A stretch of DNA of 64,000 nucleotides from Terricaulis silvestris (GTDB taxonomy: Bacteria; Pseudomonadota; Alphaproteobacteria; Caulobacterales; Aquidulcibacteraceae), in assembly GCF_009792355.1 (NCBI RefSeq), contig NZ_CP047045.1, positions 3,684,501 to 3,748,500 on the forward strand, written 5' to 3'. Each line of letters opens with the position of its first letter. The first letter of the stretch is position 1. The notes below the pieces were generated by a model. It worked only from the letters and a program-made list of their open reading frames with translations, was not told the origin of the DNA and searched no databases. Positions 24,131 through 30,238 of the stretch are shown in pieces. The translations under genes and the position numbers were made by a program.

Positions 24131-25654
24131 TTACGAGGCGCGGACCATGCCGCCCTGATCGGCCCCGGCCCATTGGCGTTTCAGGCTCAAGGCTTCCGCG
24201 ACATGAATGCGACGGACGGCCTCTGAGCCGTCGAGATCGGCGATGGTGCGCGCGACTTTGAGGGTGCGGTGATACGCGCGGGCCGACAGCGAAAGCGTCT
24301 CCGCCGCCTTCGCCAGCAGCGCGGCGCCGGGTCCATCGGGTGCGGCGAAGCGTTCGAGTGAATCGAGATCGAGCACCGCGTTGAGACCGCCGCCGCGTTC
24401 GGCTTGCGCGCCGCGCGCGTGCAGCACGCGGTTGGCCGCTTCGGCGGTGCCTTCGATCGGCGGCGGCAGAGCGAGATCGGCGGCTGTGACGGCTGGGATG
24501 TCGAGCTGAATGTCGATGCGATCGAGCAAAGGCCCCGAGAGACGCGCTTGGTAGTCGATCGCGCAGCGCGGCCCACGCCGGCATTGGCCCGCGCCTGGGC
24601 CACCACCGCAGCGGCACGGGTTCATCGCGGCGGCCAATAGAATGCGTGCGGGATATGTGACGTGATGATTCGCGCGCGCGATCAGCACTTGGCCGGACTC
24701 GAGTGGCTGGCGCAGCGCATCCAGTGCTTGCTGTGAGAACTCGGGCAATTCATCGAGGAAGAGCACGCCTTGGTGCGCCAAGCTGATTTCGCCCGGCTTC
24801 GCGCGCAAACCACCACCAACAAGCGCCGCCATCGATGCGGAATGGTGCGGCGCGCGGAAGGGGCGCGTGCGTGTCAAACGTCCGCGTTCCAGCAAACCCG
24901 CAACAGAATGCAGCATCGATACTTCAAGCAATTCTTCGCTGGAAAGCGCCGGCATTAGGCCCGGCAGCCGTTGCGCCAGCATGGATTTCCCTGCGCCGGG
25001 CGGGCCGACGAAGAGAATGTTGTGCGCGCCGGCAGCGGCGATTTCGAGCGCGCGCTTGCCTTGCTCCTGGCCGCGCACGTCGCGCAAATCGGGGACGGCA
25101 GCTCCAGAGATCAGATCGCCACGCTCAGGCGGCTTGATCGCAGCGCCGCCGCGGAAATGATTGACCAGTGAGAGCAATGACGGCGCAGCGATCACTTCGC
25201 CGCCGGCCCACGCCGCCTCCGAGCCGCACGCTTCGGGACAAATGAACGCCGCGCCCATGCCGTGCGCGGCCATCGCCGCCGGCAGCGCACCCGGCGCGGG
25301 CGCCAACGCGCCGTCCAATCCGACTTCGCCGAAGCAGACGACATTGTCGAGCGCGTCGTGCGGCAGTGCGCCGATCGCGGCCATCATGGCGAGCGCGATC
25401 GGCAAATCGTAGTGCGTCCCCTCTTTCGGGAGATCCGCAGGCGCGAGGTTGACCACCAAGCGGCCTGCTGGAATTGCAAGTCCGATAGACGCAAACGCAG
25501 CCCGCACGCGCTCCCGGCTTTCGGAAACGGCCTTGTCGCCGAGCCCAACAATGACGATGCCGTGCGTGCCGCCGGCCAGTTGTGCTTGAACTTCGACGCG
25601 GCGCGTTTCGAGACCCGCGAAAGCCACCGTCACCGCATTGGCGCACGTCTGCAT
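24131..25654 (-). CDS. comM: YifB/ComM family Mg-chelatase-like AAA+ ATPase
   Basis: 507 aa. ComM is a hexameric helicase that promotes branch migration in natural transformation. An N-terminal ChlI-like Lon-type domain (IVGLGDKAVSESRERVRAA) precedes the AAA+ domain with Walker A GPPGAGKS at 217-224, then a cysteine-rich MNPCRCGG...CRRGPRC zinc-like motif and a C-terminal lid domain. The ATG at 25654 gives the usual family start and length; another start lies 21 nt upstream. A transposon begins 33 nt before the start codon, so the native promoter may be displaced. Confidence 0.93.
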   Translation of the reverse strand: MQTCANAVTVAFAGLETRRVEVQAQLAGGTHGIVIVGLGDKAVSESRERVRAAFASIGLAIPAGRLVVNLAPADLPKEGTHYDLPIALAMMAAIGALPHDALDNVVCFGEVGLDGALAPAPGALPAAMAAHGMGAAFICPEACGSEAAWAGGEVIAAPSLLSLVNHFRGGAAIKPPERGDLISGAAVPDLRDVRGQEQGKRALEIAAAGAHNILFVGPPGAGKSMLAQRLPGLMPALSSEELLEVSMLHSVAGLLERGRLTRTRPFRAPHHSASMAALVGGGLRAKPGEISLAHQGVLFLDELPEFSQQALDALRQPLESGQVLIARANHHVTYPARILLAAAMNPCRCGGGPGAGQCRRGPRCAIDYQARLSGPLLDRIDIQLDIPAVTAADLALPPPIEGTAEAANRVLHARGAQAERGGGLNAVLDLDSLERFAAPDGPGAALLAKAAETLSLSARAYHRTLKVARTIADLDGSEAVRRIHVAEALSLKRQWAGADQGGMVRAS

Positions 25655-25667
25655 GAGAGCCCCGCCT

Positions 25668-25676
25668 TTATCCACA
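25668..25676 (+). promoter_or_regulatory. Perfect DnaA box
   Basis: TTATCCACA, an exact match to the DnaA-box consensus, lies in the native DNA between the comM start and the transposon. It is 3 nt from the target duplication. A single box is weak evidence for function. Confidence 0.4.
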
Positions 25677-25687
25677 GACCGGGTCTC

Positions 25688-25706
25688 GGTACTGTCTCAG
25701 TTTGAA
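25688..25706 (+). repeat. Left terminal inverted repeat of the transposon
   Basis: GGTACTGTCTCAGTTTGAA, identical over 19 bp to the complement of 30137-30155. The similarity weakens just inside (matches at inner positions 22 and 24-26). Confidence 0.95.
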
Positions 25707-25782
25707 ATCGGAACAAGCTTGACCGGGCGTTGAAAAATAGGCCGGAGCGGGCCATGCTTAGCGGCAGGCATGGGAGGCTCGC

Positions 25783-26076
25783 ATGAGCAATATCGATGCG
25801 ATTGAGACCTACATCGAGCGGATGAAAGAAGCCGCAGACAAGAACATTCCGATTTCGGTGGCGTTCTATGGACACCAAGCAAACGTCGTCGCCACTATGG
25901 CCGTCCACCACGAACTTTGGCTGCTGGTCGAAGAAATAAGGGCGCTCCGTTCTGAGTTGGCGCTGGCGCGCAATCCGACATCAACCGCACCGCCGCCACC
26001 GCCAGTTCCGCCCCCACGTCCGGCGCCACAGGCAGACCTGAACTATCGCGGCCCATCTCCATTCAAGCGGTTTTGA
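25783..26076 (+). CDS. Transposon cargo: small protein with proline-rich tail
   Basis: 97 aa, family not recognised. The first 60 residues look helical and amphipathic (DAIETYIERMKEAADKN ... VEEIRALRSELALAR), possibly a coiled coil. They are followed by a proline-rich stretch (about 67-82) and a short basic-aromatic end (SPFKRF). The ATG is preceded by a strong GGGAGG site at 5-6 nt. It lies 3 nt before the next gene, so the two form an operon reading into the element. An AGCTTGACC sequence at 25717-25725, also found before the gene at 26384, could be a shared -35 region. Confidence 0.7.
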   Translation: MSNIDAIETYIERMKEAADKNIPISVAFYGHQANVVATMAVHHELWLLVEEIRALRSELALARNPTSTAPPPPPVPPPRPAPQADLNYRGPSPFKRF

Positions 26077-26079
26077 TCC

Positions 26080-26325
26080 ATGCCTAAAGGCCCACGCGGC
26101 GAACGCCGCCCCACAGACGTTATAGGCGCCGCCATAAAGGTTGGTCGCCTTGCTGTAGGCGATGACACCGAAGACCTGAAAGACGATGGGAAAGACCCAG
26201 CCGCTAAAGCGCTAGGGGCTAAGGGCGGCGCTGCGCGGGCTAAGAGTCTAAGCGCCTCAAAACGCTCGGAAATCGCCAAGAAGGCGGCGGCGAAGCGTTG
26301 GGGCTCCCCGAAAAAGCGAAAGTAG
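26080..26325 (+). CDS. Transposon cargo: small basic protein with AAAKRW motif
   Basis: 81 aa, strongly basic toward the C-terminus. It starts MPKGPRGERRPTDVIGAAIKVGRLA and contains ALGAKGGAARAKSL followed by EIAKKAAAKRW. Small proteins with this architecture are widespread in alphaproteobacteria, often as orphans and usually labelled hypothetical or RNA-binding; I cannot assign a function. The lysine/alanine repeats suggest nucleic-acid contact, which is inference. It is 3 nt downstream of the proline-rich protein gene. Confidence 0.72.
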   Translation: MPKGPRGERRPTDVIGAAIKVGRLAVGDDTEDLKDDGKDPAAKALGAKGGAARAKSLSASKRSEIAKKAAAKRWGSPKKRK

Positions 26326-26336
26326 AGCTTGACCAT

Positions 26337-26378
26337 TGTCCCAAATTCCTGCATCAAATGATGCAGAGTTTTGGGACA
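26337..26378. promoter_or_regulatory. 42-bp two-tier palindrome, candidate operator
   Basis: Outer arms TGTCCCAAA/TTTGGGACA (9 bp) and inner arms CTGCATCA/TGATGCAG (8 bp) are arranged symmetrically around AA, with 3-nt mismatched spacers. The palindrome ends 5 nt before the ATG at 26384. A TTGACC that could be a -35 element lies just before it (26329-26334), so a bound protein would block the promoter. The XRE protein encoded two genes on is the natural candidate repressor. Equally, it could form an RNA hairpin at the start codon. Confidence 0.6.
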
Positions 26379-26383
26379 TCAAT

Positions 26384-27019
26384 ATGACCGACACCGTTCT
26401 CCGGGAATCCCACGAAGTCGTTCCCTTCCTGACGACGCTCAGCTTGGACGTGGAAGGGTTGGTCGAGGCGGTGAGGTACGCTGAGAGCCAGCGCGCACTC
26501 TGCACCAGCAATGACGTCCACGGCTTCTCTCAGATGACGGTCTACGACAAAGCCGCGCGCGGCTTGCGCGAGGTCTATTGCGGTAGAGACGGCTGGGAAA
26601 AGGACGAGACGAACAATCAAGCGGGCATCTGCAATCCCGCTCTGAAAATTCGCGTAGTCCCCTGCAACTTTACGATTGAATGCGGAACGTCGGTTGAGCC
26701 GACGAACCGTTCGCCTAAGGGCGAAGTCAGCAAAGCGAAAGCGCGATGCAATGCGACTGGCTGGCTTCCCGGTTTGCCGGACATCGAAGCGCAAGAAGGT
26801 AGCGAATACAAAACTTGGATACTTGGAATCTACGCGGTCGGCGGTGAACCGTTGAAAGCGGAGCTTTCTTTCCCGGTCGCCTTCGACGGAAAGTATTTCA
26901 CGCGGTTTGAGACGCGCGTCATCCTTCTGCGTGGCAGCGAAGACGACGACACGCCAACCGGTCGCCGTGACGCGCCGGAGCCAACGGAAGTGGTAGACAT
27001 TCCAATCGCACGGCGCTGA
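26384..27019 (+). CDS. Transposon cargo: unknown protein paired with XRE-ImmA protease
   Basis: 211 aa, no recognisable family. Predicted largely beta-rich, with several cysteines in the first half (CTSNDVHG, REVYCGRDGW, GICNPALKIRVVPC, FTIECG), no signal peptide and an acidic-rich C-terminus. The frame extends to 26336, but ATG at 26384 lies just after the palindrome and avoids coding through it. No Shine-Dalgarno is visible in front, so it may be leaderless or start at the upstream TTG. Its stop is 3 nt before the XRE-ImmA gene. In ImmA/IrrE systems the neighbour is often the regulated target or partner, so this may be a substrate, effector or antitoxin. Confidence 0.72.
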   Translation: MTDTVLRESHEVVPFLTTLSLDVEGLVEAVRYAESQRALCTSNDVHGFSQMTVYDKAARGLREVYCGRDGWEKDETNNQAGICNPALKIRVVPCNFTIECGTSVEPTNRSPKGEVSKAKARCNATGWLPGLPDIEAQEGSEYKTWILGIYAVGGEPLKAELSFPVAFDGKYFTRFETRVILLRGSEDDDTPTGRRDAPEPTEVVDIPIARR

Positions 27020-27022
27020 GCC

Positions 27023-28093
27023 ATGCCAAATCCTGATCGAATTGAGTTGGTCCGGCGGCGGCTTGGACTGACTAAGAGCGGACTCGCTGATCGGCTAAAG
27101 ATCGATCGCAAAGTTCTGCAACGTTTCGAAAGTGGCGAGTTCGGATTTCCTGATCCGAGCCTAGATGCGCTGTGTCGAGAAACCGGGTACCCGCGCGCCT
27201 TCTTTGAAAAAGGCACGTTCGAATTTCCTAGCGCACACGGCGTGAGCTTCCGTTCGCTACGCTCTTTGACTGCGGGCACCCGCGACGCTGCATTGGCAGC
27301 GGGAGCGCTGGCGTTTGAGTTCGATGACTGGATTGCAGCGCGCTACGCATTGCCAGCGCATCAAATCCCCCAGATCGAACAACAGTCACCCGAGCAAGCG
27401 GCGGCGTTTGTCCGCGCCAAGTGGGGCATAGGCGAGCGCCCCATCGGCAACATGCTGAACCTTTTGGAGTCTAAAGGCGTTCGCGTGTTCTCTCTCGCGG
27501 AGGAGACGCGCCATTTGGATGCGTACTCATTCTGGCGCGATGACAAACAGCCTTATGTGTTTCTCAACACCCTAAAGACGGCTGAGCGCACTCGCTTTGA
27601 TGCCGCGCATGAGCTTGGGCATTTGGTGATGCACCGGCATTCGGGCTCGACGAATCCTAGCGCTGAGAATGAGGCCAATGCGTTCGCATCGGCGTTTCTA
27701 ATGCCGCCAGCCGATCTGCTCGCTGAGATTCCTCGTGTTCGTTCGCTAGAACAAATCATCGAGAAGAAAACTCGCTGGGGCGTGTCTGCTTCTGCGCTCT
27801 GCTACGCGCTGAACAAGCATGAGCGAATGACCGAATGGAATTACCGAGGCTACAATGTCTCGCTCGCGCAAATGAAGAGCGAGCCGAATGCGTTGCCGCG
27901 CGAGACCTCACAAATTTGGACGAAAATTCTTACTGACCTTTGGCGGCAAGGCATCCCGCTGTCGCGCGTATCTGACGAGCTTTTGATTCCTGAGTGGGAA
28001 TTGAACGCGCTCCTCTTCGGTATCGCCTCCACGCAGGCCCCCGGCGCACCGCCGCCTGCCGCCGCGCCACTCCGATTGGTCGGAGATGCTTGA
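27023..28093 (+). CDS. XRE regulator fused to ImmA/IrrE zinc metallopeptidase
   Basis: 356 aa. An N-terminal HTH_XRE domain (about 5-60) is followed by a linker and an ImmA/IrrE (peptidase_M78) domain. The zinc site is intact: HELGH at 196-200 and a downstream glutamate (E217) in ENEANAFASAFLMP. Relatives act as proteolytic switches: ImmA cleaves the repressor of ICEBs1 and IrrE cleaves DdrO; fused forms can also be toxin-antitoxin partners. Here it could control the element's own genes through the palindrome at 26337-26378. A proline/alanine-rich tail ends the protein. The stop lies just before the transposase gene. Confidence 0.9.
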   Translation: MPNPDRIELVRRRLGLTKSGLADRLKIDRKVLQRFESGEFGFPDPSLDALCRETGYPRAFFEKGTFEFPSAHGVSFRSLRSLTAGTRDAALAAGALAFEFDDWIAARYALPAHQIPQIEQQSPEQAAAFVRAKWGIGERPIGNMLNLLESKGVRVFSLAEETRHLDAYSFWRDDKQPYVFLNTLKTAERTRFDAAHELGHLVMHRHSGSTNPSAENEANAFASAFLMPPADLLAEIPRVRSLEQIIEKKTRWGVSASALCYALNKHERMTEWNYRGYNVSLAQMKSEPNALPRETSQIWTKILTDLWRQGIPLSRVSDELLIPEWELNALLFGIASTQAPGAPPPAAAPLRLVGDA

Positions 28094-28096
28094 CGC

Positions 28097-28115
28097 TAAG
28101 CATAAAGTTCAGTAT
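28097..28115 (+). repeat. Internal copy of the right subterminal sequence, before the transposase gene
   Basis: TAAGCATAAAGTTCAGTAT matches 17 of 19 bases, in direct orientation, with 30119-30137 just inside the right end. It sits between the XRE-ImmA stop and the transposase start. It could be a transposase-binding site used for autoregulation, or a relic of an older element end. Confidence 0.55.
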
Positions 28116-28124
28116 AACCGGGGA

Positions 28125-29030
28125 ATGGCAAACGTGCTGCCCCTCGCGAAACGCGTTCAAATCCTGAACCTGCTCAACGAGGGCATGTCGATGCGGGCGA
28201 TCTCCCGCGTCGCTGACGTGAGCATCAACACGGTCTCCAAGCTCTTGGTGGACGCGGGCGAAACCTGCCTCGATCTGCACGACCAGCTCGTCACGCACGT
28301 TCAAGCGAAGAACCTGCAAGCCGACGAGATTTGGTCATTCTGCTACGCCAAGCAAAAGAACGTCCCCGACGCCAAGGCCGCTCCTGAGGGCGCCGGCGAC
28401 GTGTGGACGTGGACTTGCTTGGACAGCGACTCCAAGCTGATCGTCTCCTACCTGGCCTCAGGACGCACGCAGAGCGCCGCCATTCACTTCATGAAGGACG
28501 TGGCGAGCCGCATCACGGGGCGCGTGCAACTCACCACGGACGGCCACAACAGCTACCCTTACGCGGTGCATGTCGCGTTCGGTAAGAACGTGGACTTCGC
28601 TCAGCTTGTGAAAACCTACGGCGCGGAAGGCGGCTCTGGCCCCGAGCGCAAGTACTCTCCCCCGGTTTGCACCGGCGCGCACAAGGTTGTGCGCCAAGGC
28701 AACCCGGATCAATCGAAGATCTCAACGTCGCACGTTGAGCGCGCCAATCTCACCATGCGCATGGGAATGCGCCGCTTTACGCGCCTGACCAACGCGCATT
28801 CCAAGAAGTACGCGAACCACCTCTACGCGCTGGCGCTTTTCTTCATGCACTACAATTTCGTGCGCCAGCACAAGGCGCACAAACTCTCGCCCGCGATGGC
28901 GGCCGGGATTACCGATCGGCTTTGGTCTATGGAAGATATTGCAGAGCGGATTGAAACGCGCGTGAACCAGCCGAAGGCACGCGGCCCCTATAAGGTCCGC
29001 AAGCCCCGTTCCGAGGATGATGCGCGATAA
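28125..29030 (+). CDS. IS1-type DDE transposase
   Basis: 301 aa from ATG 28125; an ATG at 28086 would add 13 residues, but MANVLPLAKRVQIL is the usual family start. An N-terminal HTH (about 10-42, MRAISRVADVSINTVSKLL) is followed by the catalytic domain with D67 in ADEIW, D139 in TTDGH and E205 in HVERAN, a complete DDE triad. The MRRFTRLTNAHSKK and HYNFVRQHK segments match transposases annotated as IS1 family in alphaproteobacteria. No frameshift is needed, unlike classical IS1 InsA-InsB. It presumably acts on the 19-bp ends at 25688 and 30155. Confidence 0.92.
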   Translation: MANVLPLAKRVQILNLLNEGMSMRAISRVADVSINTVSKLLVDAGETCLDLHDQLVTHVQAKNLQADEIWSFCYAKQKNVPDAKAAPEGAGDVWTWTCLDSDSKLIVSYLASGRTQSAAIHFMKDVASRITGRVQLTTDGHNSYPYAVHVAFGKNVDFAQLVKTYGAEGGSGPERKYSPPVCTGAHKVVRQGNPDQSKISTSHVERANLTMRMGMRRFTRLTNAHSKKYANHLYALALFFMHYNFVRQHKAHKLSPAMAAGITDRLWSMEDIAERIETRVNQPKARGPYKVRKPRSEDDAR

Positions 29031-29058
29031 TCGCCTTTTGCATTCTGCGGAGGCGATA

Positions 29059-29238
29059 ATGCGACTAGTGCGACACGGCGACTTCATCGCCGTTGAACCC
29101 GACACCGACAGCGACGCTCGTATTCTAGACGCCGCTATTCTCGGCGGGGCCATTACCCTTCAGCCGGCCCCAGCTTCTCAACTAGCCACTCATTCACCGG
29201 CGGGAAGCCCCAACCACTCATCGGACGCGCAAGCGTAA
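29059..29238 (+). CDS. Transposon cargo: small hypothetical protein
   Basis: 59 aa, MRLVRHGDFIAVEPDTDSDARILD..., family unknown. The main support is a perfect GGAGG ribosome site 5 nt before the ATG. Its last 86 nt overlap, on the opposite strand, the 3' end of the Cas2-like gene, and the C-terminal part (QPAPASQLATHSPAGSPN) has low complexity, so the true gene might be shorter or non-functional. It is 28 nt downstream of the transposase gene. Confidence 0.45.
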   Translation: MRLVRHGDFIAVEPDTDSDARILDAAILGGAITLQPAPASQLATHSPAGSPNHSSDAQA

Positions 29239-29446
29239 TCACGTAGAGCGTGTCGTTGTCGTCGAGATACTGGCGAAGCGCTTGCTTGATGGCGGACGCT
29301 GAACTCTGCGTCTGAATCGCATACGCGGACTCAGAGAGCTTCGCCCATGCCCACGTCTTTTTAATGTGGGCGAGAAGCTTGTTGCGGTCATTCAACCAAC
29401 CGCGACGCTCCTTGTTCATATCGTAGGCAACTAATCGTACTGACAT
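29153..29446 (-). CDS. Transposon cargo: Cas2-like / SinR-family small protein
   Basis: 97 aa from ATG 29446, with GGAG 8 nt upstream. The pattern is a first strand SVRLVAYDMN, a helix with KLLAHIKKTWAWAKLSESAYAIQT, and a later strand DTLYVITLARPMSGWGF. This is the ferredoxin-like layout of Cas2 and VapD relatives annotated as SinR-family protein (not the Bacillus SinR regulator). There is no cas1 or CRISPR array nearby. Related proteins are orphan, and an RNase or nucleic-acid role is only inferred. It is the only gene on the minus strand of the transposon. Confidence 0.7.
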   Translation of the reverse strand: MSVRLVAYDMNKERRGWLNDRNKLLAHIKKTWAWAKLSESAYAIQTQSSASAIKQALRQYLDDNDTLYVITLARPMSGWGFPPVNEWLVEKLGPAEG

Positions 29447-29564
29447 TGTTAGCTCCAATCGGAGCCCACTTGACGGCTTTGCCAAACCCTTTGTTAACTC
29501 TCAGGACATAGCTTCGCCGTGTCTCGCCGTGGGCATTTTGCGCGAGACTGGTTCACTCGATTTG

Positions 29565-29592
29565 CCCTCTGCGAGTTCGCACCTCGCAGGGG
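29565..29592. repeat. Inverted repeat in transposon cargo
   Basis: CTGCGAG and CTCGCAG form 7-bp arms around a 7-nt loop, with CCC/GGG outside one mismatch. It lies in the 255-bp spacer between two divergent cargo genes. It could be an operator or a hairpin; no T-run follows. Confidence 0.35.
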
Positions 29593-29701
29593 GATCGAGC
29601 TTCCCGTCTTCATCATCATGGATGACCGGTTAATCCGGGGTTGAAGCTGTCCCGCTTCGGCACAACTTTCTCCGCGCATGGGGTCGTCTGGGGAGACGAC
29701 C

Positions 29702-29884
29702 ATGGAAGAAGAACCGGAGCAGCCTTCGCTCTTTCCGCCGAACGACCGGTTGAAAGACTTGTTTCAACCGAACCCGCACCCGCCAGGGACAGTGATCAAA
29801 CGCGAGCCGATCAAGAAGCGCCGGCGCCGCAAGGGTCCGCAGAATGACAGCGGCTGGCCGGATGATACAAAGGCCGATGCCTGA
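29702..29884 (+). CDS. Transposon cargo: small charged protein
   Basis: 60 aa, family unknown. An acidic, proline-rich N-terminus (MEEEPEQPSLFPPNDRLKDLF) is followed by a very basic stretch (KREPIKKRRRRKG) and an acidic end. Likely soluble; the basic run could contact nucleic acid. GGGGAG lies 6 nt before the ATG. Its last 8 nt overlap the start of the next small gene. Confidence 0.6.
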   Translation: MEEEPEQPSLFPPNDRLKDLFQPNPHPPGTVIKREPIKKRRRRKGPQNDSGWPDDTKADA

Positions 29885-30017
29885 GTATTGGCCCCCTCCA
29901 GAAGAGCACGAGCGCGAGCGCCGGCGCCTAGATGCGATCCGGCCTTGGCATCAAGCTGTGGCGGCTGGGCTGGCGCTCATGTTGATCGCGGCGGTTGTGA
30001 TCGCAGTTCGGGGATAA
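29877..30017 (+). CDS. Transposon cargo: 46-aa single-span membrane peptide
   Basis: Very small gene starting ATG 29877 inside the end of the preceding gene (8-nt overlap) and ending TAA 30017. The N-terminus is charged and proline-rich (MPEYWPPPEEHERERRRLDA). It is followed by one hydrophobic segment (AVAAGLALMLIAAVVIAV) and a short RG tail, giving a clear N-in/C-out type membrane span. Overlap with a well-placed upstream gene and the clean hydrophobic helix support reality. Small toxins and holin-like peptides look like this, but so do many harmless ones. Confidence 0.5.
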   Translation: MPEYWPPPEEHERERRRLDAIRPWHQAVAAGLALMLIAAVVIAVRG

Positions 30018-30054
30018 CGCGGAACAAAGCGAGCAATATCAACGCACTATAAAC

Positions 30055-30063
30055 TGTGGATAA
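30055..30063 (-). promoter_or_regulatory. Perfect DnaA box inside the transposon right arm
   Basis: TGTGGATAA is the exact complement of the DnaA-box consensus TTATCCACA. It lies 92 nt inside the right end, in the 119-nt noncoding stretch before the terminal repeat. Some transposons carry DnaA boxes near an end (Tn5 outside end), but function here is untested. Confidence 0.4.
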
Positions 30064-30136
30064 CTCTGTGGGCGGCGCAAACGCCGAAAAGCGCTGCAAT
30101 AACAGCGCCGTAAGCCCATAAGCATAAGTTTCAGTA

Positions 30137-30155
30137 TTCAAACTGAGACAGTACC
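30137..30155 (-). repeat. Right terminal inverted repeat of the transposon
   Basis: The complement reads GGTACTGTCTCAGTTTGAA, identical to the left end. It is followed directly by CGGGTCTC, the second copy of the 8-bp target duplication. Confidence 0.95.
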
Positions 30156-30238
30156 CGGGTCTCAGATCGTACACATGAAGAACAAACGCGCAACAAAAAT
30201 CGAACGCTTTGCGCGCGGTCGGTGCGATAGGCGGTGAG

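What the first reader, a model, noticed from the sequence alone, without database searches (positions are those of the whole stretch)
25680..30163. Complete cargo-bearing IS1-type transposon with perfect ends and target duplication
Seen: 19-bp perfect inverted repeats (25688-25706, 30137-30155) and an 8-bp direct repeat CGGGTCTC directly outside both. Inside is a DDE transposase plus seven to eight other genes, unusual for an IS1-type element that is normally about 1 kb. Known: IS1-group transposition gives 8-9 bp duplications. Inferred: a recent insertion that mobilises a small gene module.
Basis: partly seen in the sequence, partly recalled or inferred. Interest (0 to 1): 0.82.

Follow-up and report, generated by a model that had tools for sequence, protein, structure and literature searches.

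The report
Promoter-targeting transposon carrying phage-defence genes
A 4.5-kb jumping gene carries a likely phage-defence toxin-antitoxin pair, and its relatives share the same two core genes and similar ends, carry differing other genes, and tend to land a fixed distance in front of the start signals of other genes.

Summary
25688-30155 is a complete 4,468-bp transposon: perfect 19-bp ends, 8-bp target duplication, single copy, and empty homologous sites in relatives. It is not an odd IS1. It belongs to a widespread family of distant IS1 relatives: I delimited 91 elements, all 2.1-4.9 kb, none near 1 kb. Its core is a DDE transposase plus a small basic protein, here called KGG (89 of 91), without a significant Pfam or NCBIfam match. 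Around them sits exchangeable cargo that includes many toxin-antitoxin and anti-phage modules; here it is a full RmrT-RmrA (RosmerTA) pair.

The family also has a target rule: the -35 box of a sigma-70-type promoter starts 7 bp beyond the duplication. TTGAC (at least 4 of 5) lies at that offset in 23 of 57 elements and 10 of 27 held-out ones, against 0-4 at any other offset. Some alphaproteobacterial members sit before recA (twice) and an imuA relative. The window's site, before a comM/YifB-type gene, lacks TTGAC but is occupied at the same nucleotide in four genomes with largely different cargo.

This register is published for TnGBS/ISLre2/ISKra4 (Mutator transposases); my searches found no report for IS1 relatives. 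Function is inferred, not assayed.

The parts
25680..25687 (.). left copy of the 8-bp target duplication CGGGTCTC
25688..25706 (+). left terminal inverted repeat, 19 bp perfect
   Evidence: only other genomic copy is the right end
25783..26076 (+). open frame of 97 aa, no significant family match; unsupported as a gene
26080..26325 (+). small basic core protein (KGG), 81 aa
   Evidence: profile hits 89 of 91 elements and nothing in 825 kb of flanks of the first 55; codon-position differences 5/3/31 against L022 suggest protein-level selection
26384..27019 (+). RmrT, toxin component of RosmerTA
   Evidence: PADLOC PDLC03935, E=2.1e-27, residues 4-211 of 211; no Pfam or NCBIfam family
27023..28093 (+). 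RmrA, HTH plus ImmA/IrrE (M78) protease-type antitoxin
   Evidence: PADLOC PDLC03949, E=1.8e-125; Pfam Peptidase_M78, E=6.7e-23
28086..29030 (+). DDE transposase, 314 aa, overlapping the end of RmrA by 8 bp; conserved part starts at about 28125; predicted catalytic D80, D152, E218
   Evidence: NF033558 IS1 model, 63 bits; alignment A2; model pLDDT 85.7 with RNase-H-fold transposase and integrase matches
29156..29446 (-). 97-aa protein of phrog_1090 (unknown function), weakly Cas2-like
   Evidence: phrog_1090, E=1.2e-12; Cas2 models below cut-off
29682..29701 (.). perfect 8-bp stem hairpin GGTCGTCT-GGGG-AGACGACC, conserved in three of the four same-site elements
30137..30155 (-). right terminal inverted repeat, 19 bp perfect
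30156..30163 (.). right copy of the target duplication
25668..25676 (+). TTATCCACA (matches the DnaA-box consensus, recalled) beside the insertion point, present in 22 of the 23 aligned genus sequences by eye
30180..30205 (+). three LexA-type half-sites GAAC-N7-CAAC-N7-GAAC flanking the insertion (alphaproteobacterial LexA motif recalled)
24131..25654 (-). comM/YifB-type Mg-chelatase-like AAA ATPase gene whose 5' region holds the insertion
   Evidence: TIGR00368, E=1.7e-144

Best explanation
This is an intact, recently inserted transposon of a family distantly related to IS1. The family is a two-gene mobile core: a DDE transposase and a small basic KGG protein, usually near the left end. It carries exchangeable cargo, often toxin-antitoxin or anti-phage modules, here RosmerTA. 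The transposase cuts at the GGTA(G/C)TG... ends, moves everything between them and makes 8-bp duplications. Insertion is often steered to promoters: the duplication ends 7 bp before the -35 hexamer, in either orientation, so the neighbouring gene keeps its core promoter. Shown here: ends, duplications, core conservation, differing cargo, an offset-specific promoter signal, empty sites, and two identical copies in one genome of a relative. Inferred: that this transposase is active, that KGG helps transposition or targeting, that RosmerTA defends this host, and that recognition of promoter DNA or promoter-bound polymerase sets the offset.
For: Family: of 81 loci examined (window plus 80), 55 gave a credible end pair, 52 of them with a perfect 8-bp duplication. 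Adding 9 of 12 further loci and 27 of 40 held-out loci gives 91 elements, 87 with a perfect duplication, 2,104-4,866 bp, median 3,073. Core: KGG in 89 of 91, left of and co-directional with the transposase in 84 of 91; the profile was built from 37 first-set members, and the held-out elements gave 26 of 27. In 386 class genomes 34 of 43 KGG places lie within about 4 kb of a transposase match (my count). Cargo: RmrA models match 8 of 111 first-set and 6 of 103 further cargo frames, PD-Lambda-2_B 3 and 5; neither matches any of 111 flank proteins. On a quick transposase tree 12 RosmerTA, 10 P63C and 7 PD-Lambda-2 carriers need 12, 10 and 7 changes. Target: at least 4/5 TTGAC at offset 7 in 23 of 57 (background mean 1.7, binomial P 1.9e-20) and 10 of 27 held-out (background 0.67, P 4.8e-10). 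Joint -35/-10 score of 8 or more of 12 in 26 of 84, at most 3 at any other offset 0-59, 0.5% background; in the 51 elements without TTGAC the first T of -35 (46 of 102 flanks, P 5.7e-9) and the -11 A (40 of 102, P 7.9e-6) are still enriched. Mobility: two 3,316-bp copies with 0 differences in Sphingopyxis sp. PET50 at unrelated sites with different duplications. Empty sites.
Against: No transposition was observed directly. The window's own site does not fit the TTGAC rule: neither flank has the motif at offset 7. 51 of 84 elements lack a clear TTGAC. No shuffled-label control was made for the cargo tree, sampling is sparse and the tree was a quick one. After correcting the P63C class, my seed searches name a cargo class in about 51 of 91 elements, so about 40 are unnamed. 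L085 and L231 lack a KGG hit; in seven of 91 the best hit is not left of and co-directional with the transposase, or absent; a few hits are weak. L108 has two KGG-like frames outside its element, and 9 of 43 KGG places have no transposase match nearby. KGG is predicted with low confidence (pLDDT 66, pTM 0.28). Transposase matches are rare on plasmids (19 of 72,556 records), so how the family spreads between cells is open.
Confidence: 0.8

Rival explanations
1. The offset signal is not promoter recognition but sequence mimicry. The same transposase domain that reads TTGA(A) inside its own ends also reads TTGAC in the target, and selection later removes insertions inside genes, leaving promoters.
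For: The ends read ...GTTTGAA, with TTGAA starting at the 15th base inside the junction, while target TTGAC starts at the 16th base outside it in mirror orientation. The sixth -35 base shows no preference for A.
Against: In the 51 elements without TTGAC, a -10 box (at least 4/6 in 21 of 51 at offset 7; 1-13 at 15 other offsets tried, the higher values near the element) and the -11 A are still enriched, which a bare TTGAC reader would not predict.
Confidence: 0.35
2. The four elements at the comM-type site are one ancestral insertion whose cargo was later exchanged by recombination in the shared core, not repeated insertions.
For: Same alignment position in all four. Outside the ends, KGG, transposase and short stretches they mostly do not align.
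Against: Each genome has two identical duplication copies, but the duplications differ between genomes (1 of 8 identical between window and G004), in step with local sequence. G001 has 93-98% identical flanks to G011 but is empty. G004 and G027 could still share one event (duplications 7 of 8 alike).
Confidence: 0.15
3. An ordinary IS1-like element that happened to trap neighbouring genes once; cargo and KGG are accidental hitchhikers.
For: In three plasmid records the transposase is named 'IS1 family transposase' and the KGG protein 'hypothetical protein' or 'histone H1'.
Against: KGG is in 89 of 91 elements across phyla and absent from 825 kb of flanks of the first 55; none of the 91 elements is near 1 kb; KGG shows protein-level selection.
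Confidence: 0.05
4. KGG is itself part of the cargo, for example a general antitoxin or a regulator of cargo expression, and not a transposition factor.
For: A KGG-like segment also occurs in larger cargo proteins, P63C ones among them, and in phage family phrog_2384.
Against: KGG stays while cargo differs, usually at the same end of the element.
Confidence: 0.3

Closest known systems
IS1 family (IS1A of E. coli K-12 used as yardstick)
   Same: DDE transposase kinship: InsA helix-turn-helix and InsB catalytic blocks align to the family profile; most family ends and IS1A ends start GGTRRTG; short target duplications.
   Different: 63 bits against the 100-bit model cut-off; single frame with no separate InsA; elements 2.1-4.9 kb with cargo and KGG, against 768 bp for IS1A.
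TnGBS / ISLre2 / ISKra4-group elements (prokaryotic Mutator-like transposases; PMC3942029: abstract, passages and sections 11 and 15 read)
   Same: Insertion 15-17 bp upstream of the -35 box of sigma-A promoters; elements with near-perfect repeats have promoters on both sides; 8-9 bp duplications; some carry extra genes.
   Different: Their transposases are Mutator-like. The one here has no Mutator, IS256 or ISKra4 model among its hits in Pfam or NCBIfam. KGG and defence cargo are not mentioned in the parts I read.
RosmerTA anti-phage toxin-antitoxin (PMC10440598, passages read)
   Same: Adjacent RmrT and RmrA; RmrA is HTH plus ImmA protease.
   Different: Here it rides a transposon core. Only 3 of 8 RmrT places (one model) found in 372 class genomes lie in such an element or beside its remains.
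tIS (IS with passenger genes, e.g. IS1595 family) - recalled, not tested
   Same: Transposase plus passenger genes between short ends.
   Different: A fixed second core gene and a defence bias are not something I recall for them.

Membership tests
IS1 family | transposase reaches the curated IS1 model cut-off (NF033558) | tested here: not met
   63.3 bits, cut-off 100
IS1 family | InsA-type HTH and InsB-type DDE blocks | tested here: met
   profile of 33 family members against IS1A InsA and InsB, i-E 9.5e-8 and 1e-6 in a two-sequence search
IS1 family | two overlapping frames insA/insB | tested here: not met
   one 314-aa frame here, single frames in the 33 rows I aligned; IS1A has two
IS1 family | short element without passengers | tested here: not met
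   91 elements, 2,104-4,866 bp; IS1A 768 bp
IS1 family | ends starting GGTRRTG | tested here: inconclusive
   most members GGTAGTG, the window GGTACTG; IS1A GGTGATG/GGTAATG
TnGBS/ISLre2/ISKra4 | fixed insertion upstream of -35 | tested here: met
   for the family; the window's own site does not show it
TnGBS/ISLre2/ISKra4 | Mutator-like transposase | tested here: not met
   no such model among hits up to E=1 in Pfam and NCBIfam
RosmerTA | RmrT and RmrA encoded side by side, both matching nearly full length | tested here: met
   3-bp gap between the two genes
RosmerTA | toxicity, neutralisation and phage protection | not testable with these tools
   needs bench work

The most novel reading that the evidence does not exclude
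A cross-phylum family of IS1-derived transposons is a dedicated vehicle for anti-phage and toxin-antitoxin modules. It is built on a fixed transposase plus KGG core, swaps its cargo wholesale, and has independently evolved promoter-upstream insertion, with KGG or the transposase reading the promoter or the polymerase on it. One alphaproteobacterial branch prefers SOS promoters (comM-type, recA, imuA), tying transposition to DNA damage or phage attack.
Probability: 0.3. Interest if true: 0.88.

Novelty: new variant of a known kind. Interest (0 to 1): 0.74.

Why it matters
How small defence and toxin-antitoxin modules move between genomes is an open question. Here is a compact, recognisable vehicle for some of them, with a transposase match in roughly one in seven alphaproteobacterial genomes searched if fragments count (55 of 386). 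Its promoter-upstream target rule would make insertion nearly harmless to the neighbour and gives a clean system for asking how a transposase reads a bacterial promoter. The KGG protein marks such elements and could be used to look for new defence genes between it and the transposase.

Tried and rejected
DnaA-box targeting: TTATCCACA lies beside the four comM-site insertions, but only 3 of 84 independent sites (window included) have a box with at most one mismatch within 45 bp (control windows 0.84%), so I do not claim it as a rule.

SOS targeting as the general rule: rejected. Of the downstream genes named, most are ordinary (htpG, galU, typA, glgB, porC, an enoyl-CoA hydratase and others). 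It is kept as a branch-level lead: exact LexA-type boxes near 3 of 84 sites against 0.18% of 2,848 control windows, and boxes with at most one mismatch near 11 of 84 against 4.0%.

P63C count: a first seed search gave 23 elements, inflated by the shared KGG segment; with that segment removed it is 10. Several other class labels (MazF-like, AbiEii-like, coiled-coil/wHTH, Panacea, NYN seeds) were given by eye.

A tblastn of the window's KGG protein against plasmids found nothing, although the profile finds it in the three plasmid elements. KGG structure: low confidence, not searched further. RmrT has no sequence relative among solved structures. ImuB beside L222 was named by eye; two searches gave no match.

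Rows dropped before the target counts: L051 (wrong pair), L025, L039 and L084 (no perfect 8-bp duplication), L027 (copy of L028), L022, L023 and L105 (same site as the window). L109 (7 of 8 in the duplication) was kept. The 40 held-out loci were the strongest places I chose; 13 were dropped: 7 without an end pair, 4 without a duplication, L226 (7 of 8) and L200 (duplicate of L037). Of loci L102-L113, L110-L112 gave no usable pair. Cargo scans were given 111 of 151 and 103 of 124 listed frames of about 120 aa or more; overlapping and antisense frames are among them.

Literature: ten searches, read as listings, showed no account of IS1-related elements with this core, cargo or target rule. Only open-licence papers are held, so this is weak evidence of absence.
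Full report
What was checked. The element is 4,468 bp and single copy in its 3.86-Mb genome. The 19-bp end occurs nowhere else with up to three mismatches, and the KGG profile hits once.

Genes inside. The cargo pair 26384-27019 and 27023-28093 matches RmrT (E 2.1e-27) and RmrA (E 1.8e-125) over almost their whole length, the two halves of the RosmerTA anti-phage toxin-antitoxin family (PMC10440598, passages read). RmrA has an HTH and an ImmA/IrrE-type M78 domain. The transposase at 28086-29030 is a distant IS1 relative with an RNase-H-type predicted fold; its best solved matches are retroviral integrases, Mos1, ISCth4, MuA and TnsB, at modest TM-scores. Invariant D, D and E residues in the alignment are the likely catalytic triad. 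A small basic protein at 26080-26325 has no significant Pfam or NCBIfam match (two relatives, Pfam only) and shares a short segment with phage family phrog_2384.

The family. A search with the transposase kept 80 loci of 98 confirmed. With the window, 55 of 81 gave a credible end pair and 52 of those a perfect 8-bp duplication; some of the rest are cut by contig ends. Record titles span Proteobacteria, Nitrospirota, Acidobacteria, Planctomycetes, Actinobacteria, Chloroflexi, Bacteroidota and others; many are MAGs, but Mycobacterium interjectum, Oxalobacter formigenes, Stella and Sphingopyxis are not labelled MAG. With 9 of 12 more loci and 27 of 40 held-out ones there are 91 elements, all between 2.1 and 4.9 kb. 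The small-protein profile, built from 37 first-set members, hits 54 of 55 first-set elements and none of 825 kb of their flanks, 26 of 27 held-out elements, and 89 of 91 in all. Against this: L108 has two such frames outside its element. In 386 class genomes KGG was found at 43 places in 36 genomes; by my count 34 places lie within about 4 kb of a transposase match, 9 do not, and 33 of the 36 genomes have a transposase match somewhere. Against L022 its codon-position differences are 5, 3 and 31, a sign of selection on the protein. On plasmids, 19 of 72,556 records hold a transposase match.

Cargo. PADLOC scans of 111 first-set cargo frames (of 151 listed) gave 339 families at E 1e-3, of which 25 were shown; RmrA, RmrT, HTH, HEC-09, capP, NYN and PD-Lambda-2 models led, and single proteins matched others such as type IIG restriction. 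The further 103 frames (of 124) gave, at E 1e-8, 6 RmrA, 5 PD-Lambda-2_B and 2 SoFic among 34 families. A control of 111 flank proteins drawn from 408, on average 358 aa and so not matched for length, gave 15 families at E 1e-8: none of these, but scattered others such as mads genes, PrimPol and restriction enzymes. Pfam added P63C, NYN, Fic, SocA/Panacea and Gp49. Seed searches first placed 59 of 91 elements in a class; after the P63C correction I count about 51. On a quick tree of 88 transposases, 12 RosmerTA carriers need 12 changes, 10 P63C carriers 10 and 7 PD-Lambda-2 carriers 7 (an eighth, L058, was labelled P63C). So cargo does not follow the transposase at this sampling; no shuffled control was made. 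Two identical copies in Sphingopyxis sp. PET50, 0 of 3,316 bases different, sit at unrelated places with different duplications: good evidence that a whole unit with cargo moved recently in that genome.

The site. Joined flanks of the window were found without an insert in relatives. The alignment holds 4 occupied and 19 empty sites; of the 30 genus genomes searched, the other 7 were not placed in it. The four occupied genomes (window, G011, G004, G027) are filled at the same alignment position. Each has two identical duplication copies, yet the duplications differ between genomes (window against G004: 1 of 8 alike) in step with local divergence. G001, 93-98% identical to G011 around the site, is empty. 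Repeated insertion at one nucleotide is the simplest reading, at least three times over. The four share ends, KGG and transposase (73-87% for the two genes) and short stretches; window and G004, which both carry RosmerTA, also share 219 bp at 70%. G027 carries P63C and NYN proteins, and G011's cargo I could not name. The flanking gene is of the comM/YifB type. I read the insertion as lying between its likely promoter and its start codon; that is inference.

The target rule. Looking outward from the duplications, TTGAC starts at offset 7 in 16 of 113 flanks and elsewhere in the first 50 nt twice. At least 4 of 5 matches occur at offset 7 in 23 of 57 elements. A held-out set, whose ends were set without looking beyond the duplication, gave 10 of 27. 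Of 34 such flanks, 18 have a -10-like hexamer (at least 4 of 6) 15-19 bp further on, against 10% at displaced places and 23% in other flanks. A joint promoter score peaks at this offset: 26 of 84 elements score 8 or more of 12, at most 3 at any other offset 0-59. Elements without TTGAC still show the first -35 base and the -11 A. Both sides are used about equally (16 left, 18 right; my count). This is the register published for TnGBS, ISLre2 and ISKra4 elements (PMC3942029), whose transposases are of another superfamily; it looks like convergence.

SOS branch. L026 lies 74 bp before recA, L107 next to recA, L222 before an imuA relative (E 1.8e-16, 60.6 bits, below the 150-bit cut-off), and L236 some 370 bp before a DNA polymerase III alpha gene, with LexA-type boxes at the junction. 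With the comM-type site this is suggestive. The LexA motif and the SOS membership of these genes are recalled, the numbers are small, and the spacing is not shared. It remains a lead.

What is not shown. No activity, no role for KGG, no defence phenotype. RosmerTA is not tied to this vehicle alone: of 8 RmrT places (one model) in 372 class genomes, 2 lie in intact elements, 1 beside a decayed one, and 5 show no transposase, KGG or end in the stretches fetched. Names such as IS1595/tIS are recalled.

Noticed in passing
window 29682-29701; L023 and L105 elements: A hairpin GGTCGTCT-GGGG-AGACGACC with its surroundings (31-35 bp, 97-100% identical) is conserved in three of the four same-site elements right of the transposase; the longer motif was not found in the flanks of the 91 elements.
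   Followed up: partly
window 29156-29446 (minus): Small protein of phrog_1090 with weak Cas2 similarity, a possible extra cargo gene.
   Followed up: partly
L251, 3182-5986: A decayed family member: one end, a KGG remnant and broken transposase pieces beside an RmrT gene.
   Followed up: partly
L022, L030, L033, L044, L049, L078, L105: The KGG segment also occurs in larger cargo proteins, several of them P63C proteins, suggesting a shared binding module.
   Followed up: partly
L108, 10215-10397 and 9668-9817 (minus strand): Two further KGG-like frames outside the delimited element, perhaps another element (given there in reverse-complement coordinates).
   Followed up: no
L225 and L227, left flanks: DnaA-box-like sequences beside these insertions too; L227 lies before a gene that reads by eye like a B12-dependent ribonucleotide reductase.
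   Followed up: no
L102, 4922-5760: A RES/Xre toxin-antitoxin pair lies right at and beyond the element's right end in an Acidiphilium plasmid, a possible source of new cargo.
   Followed up: no
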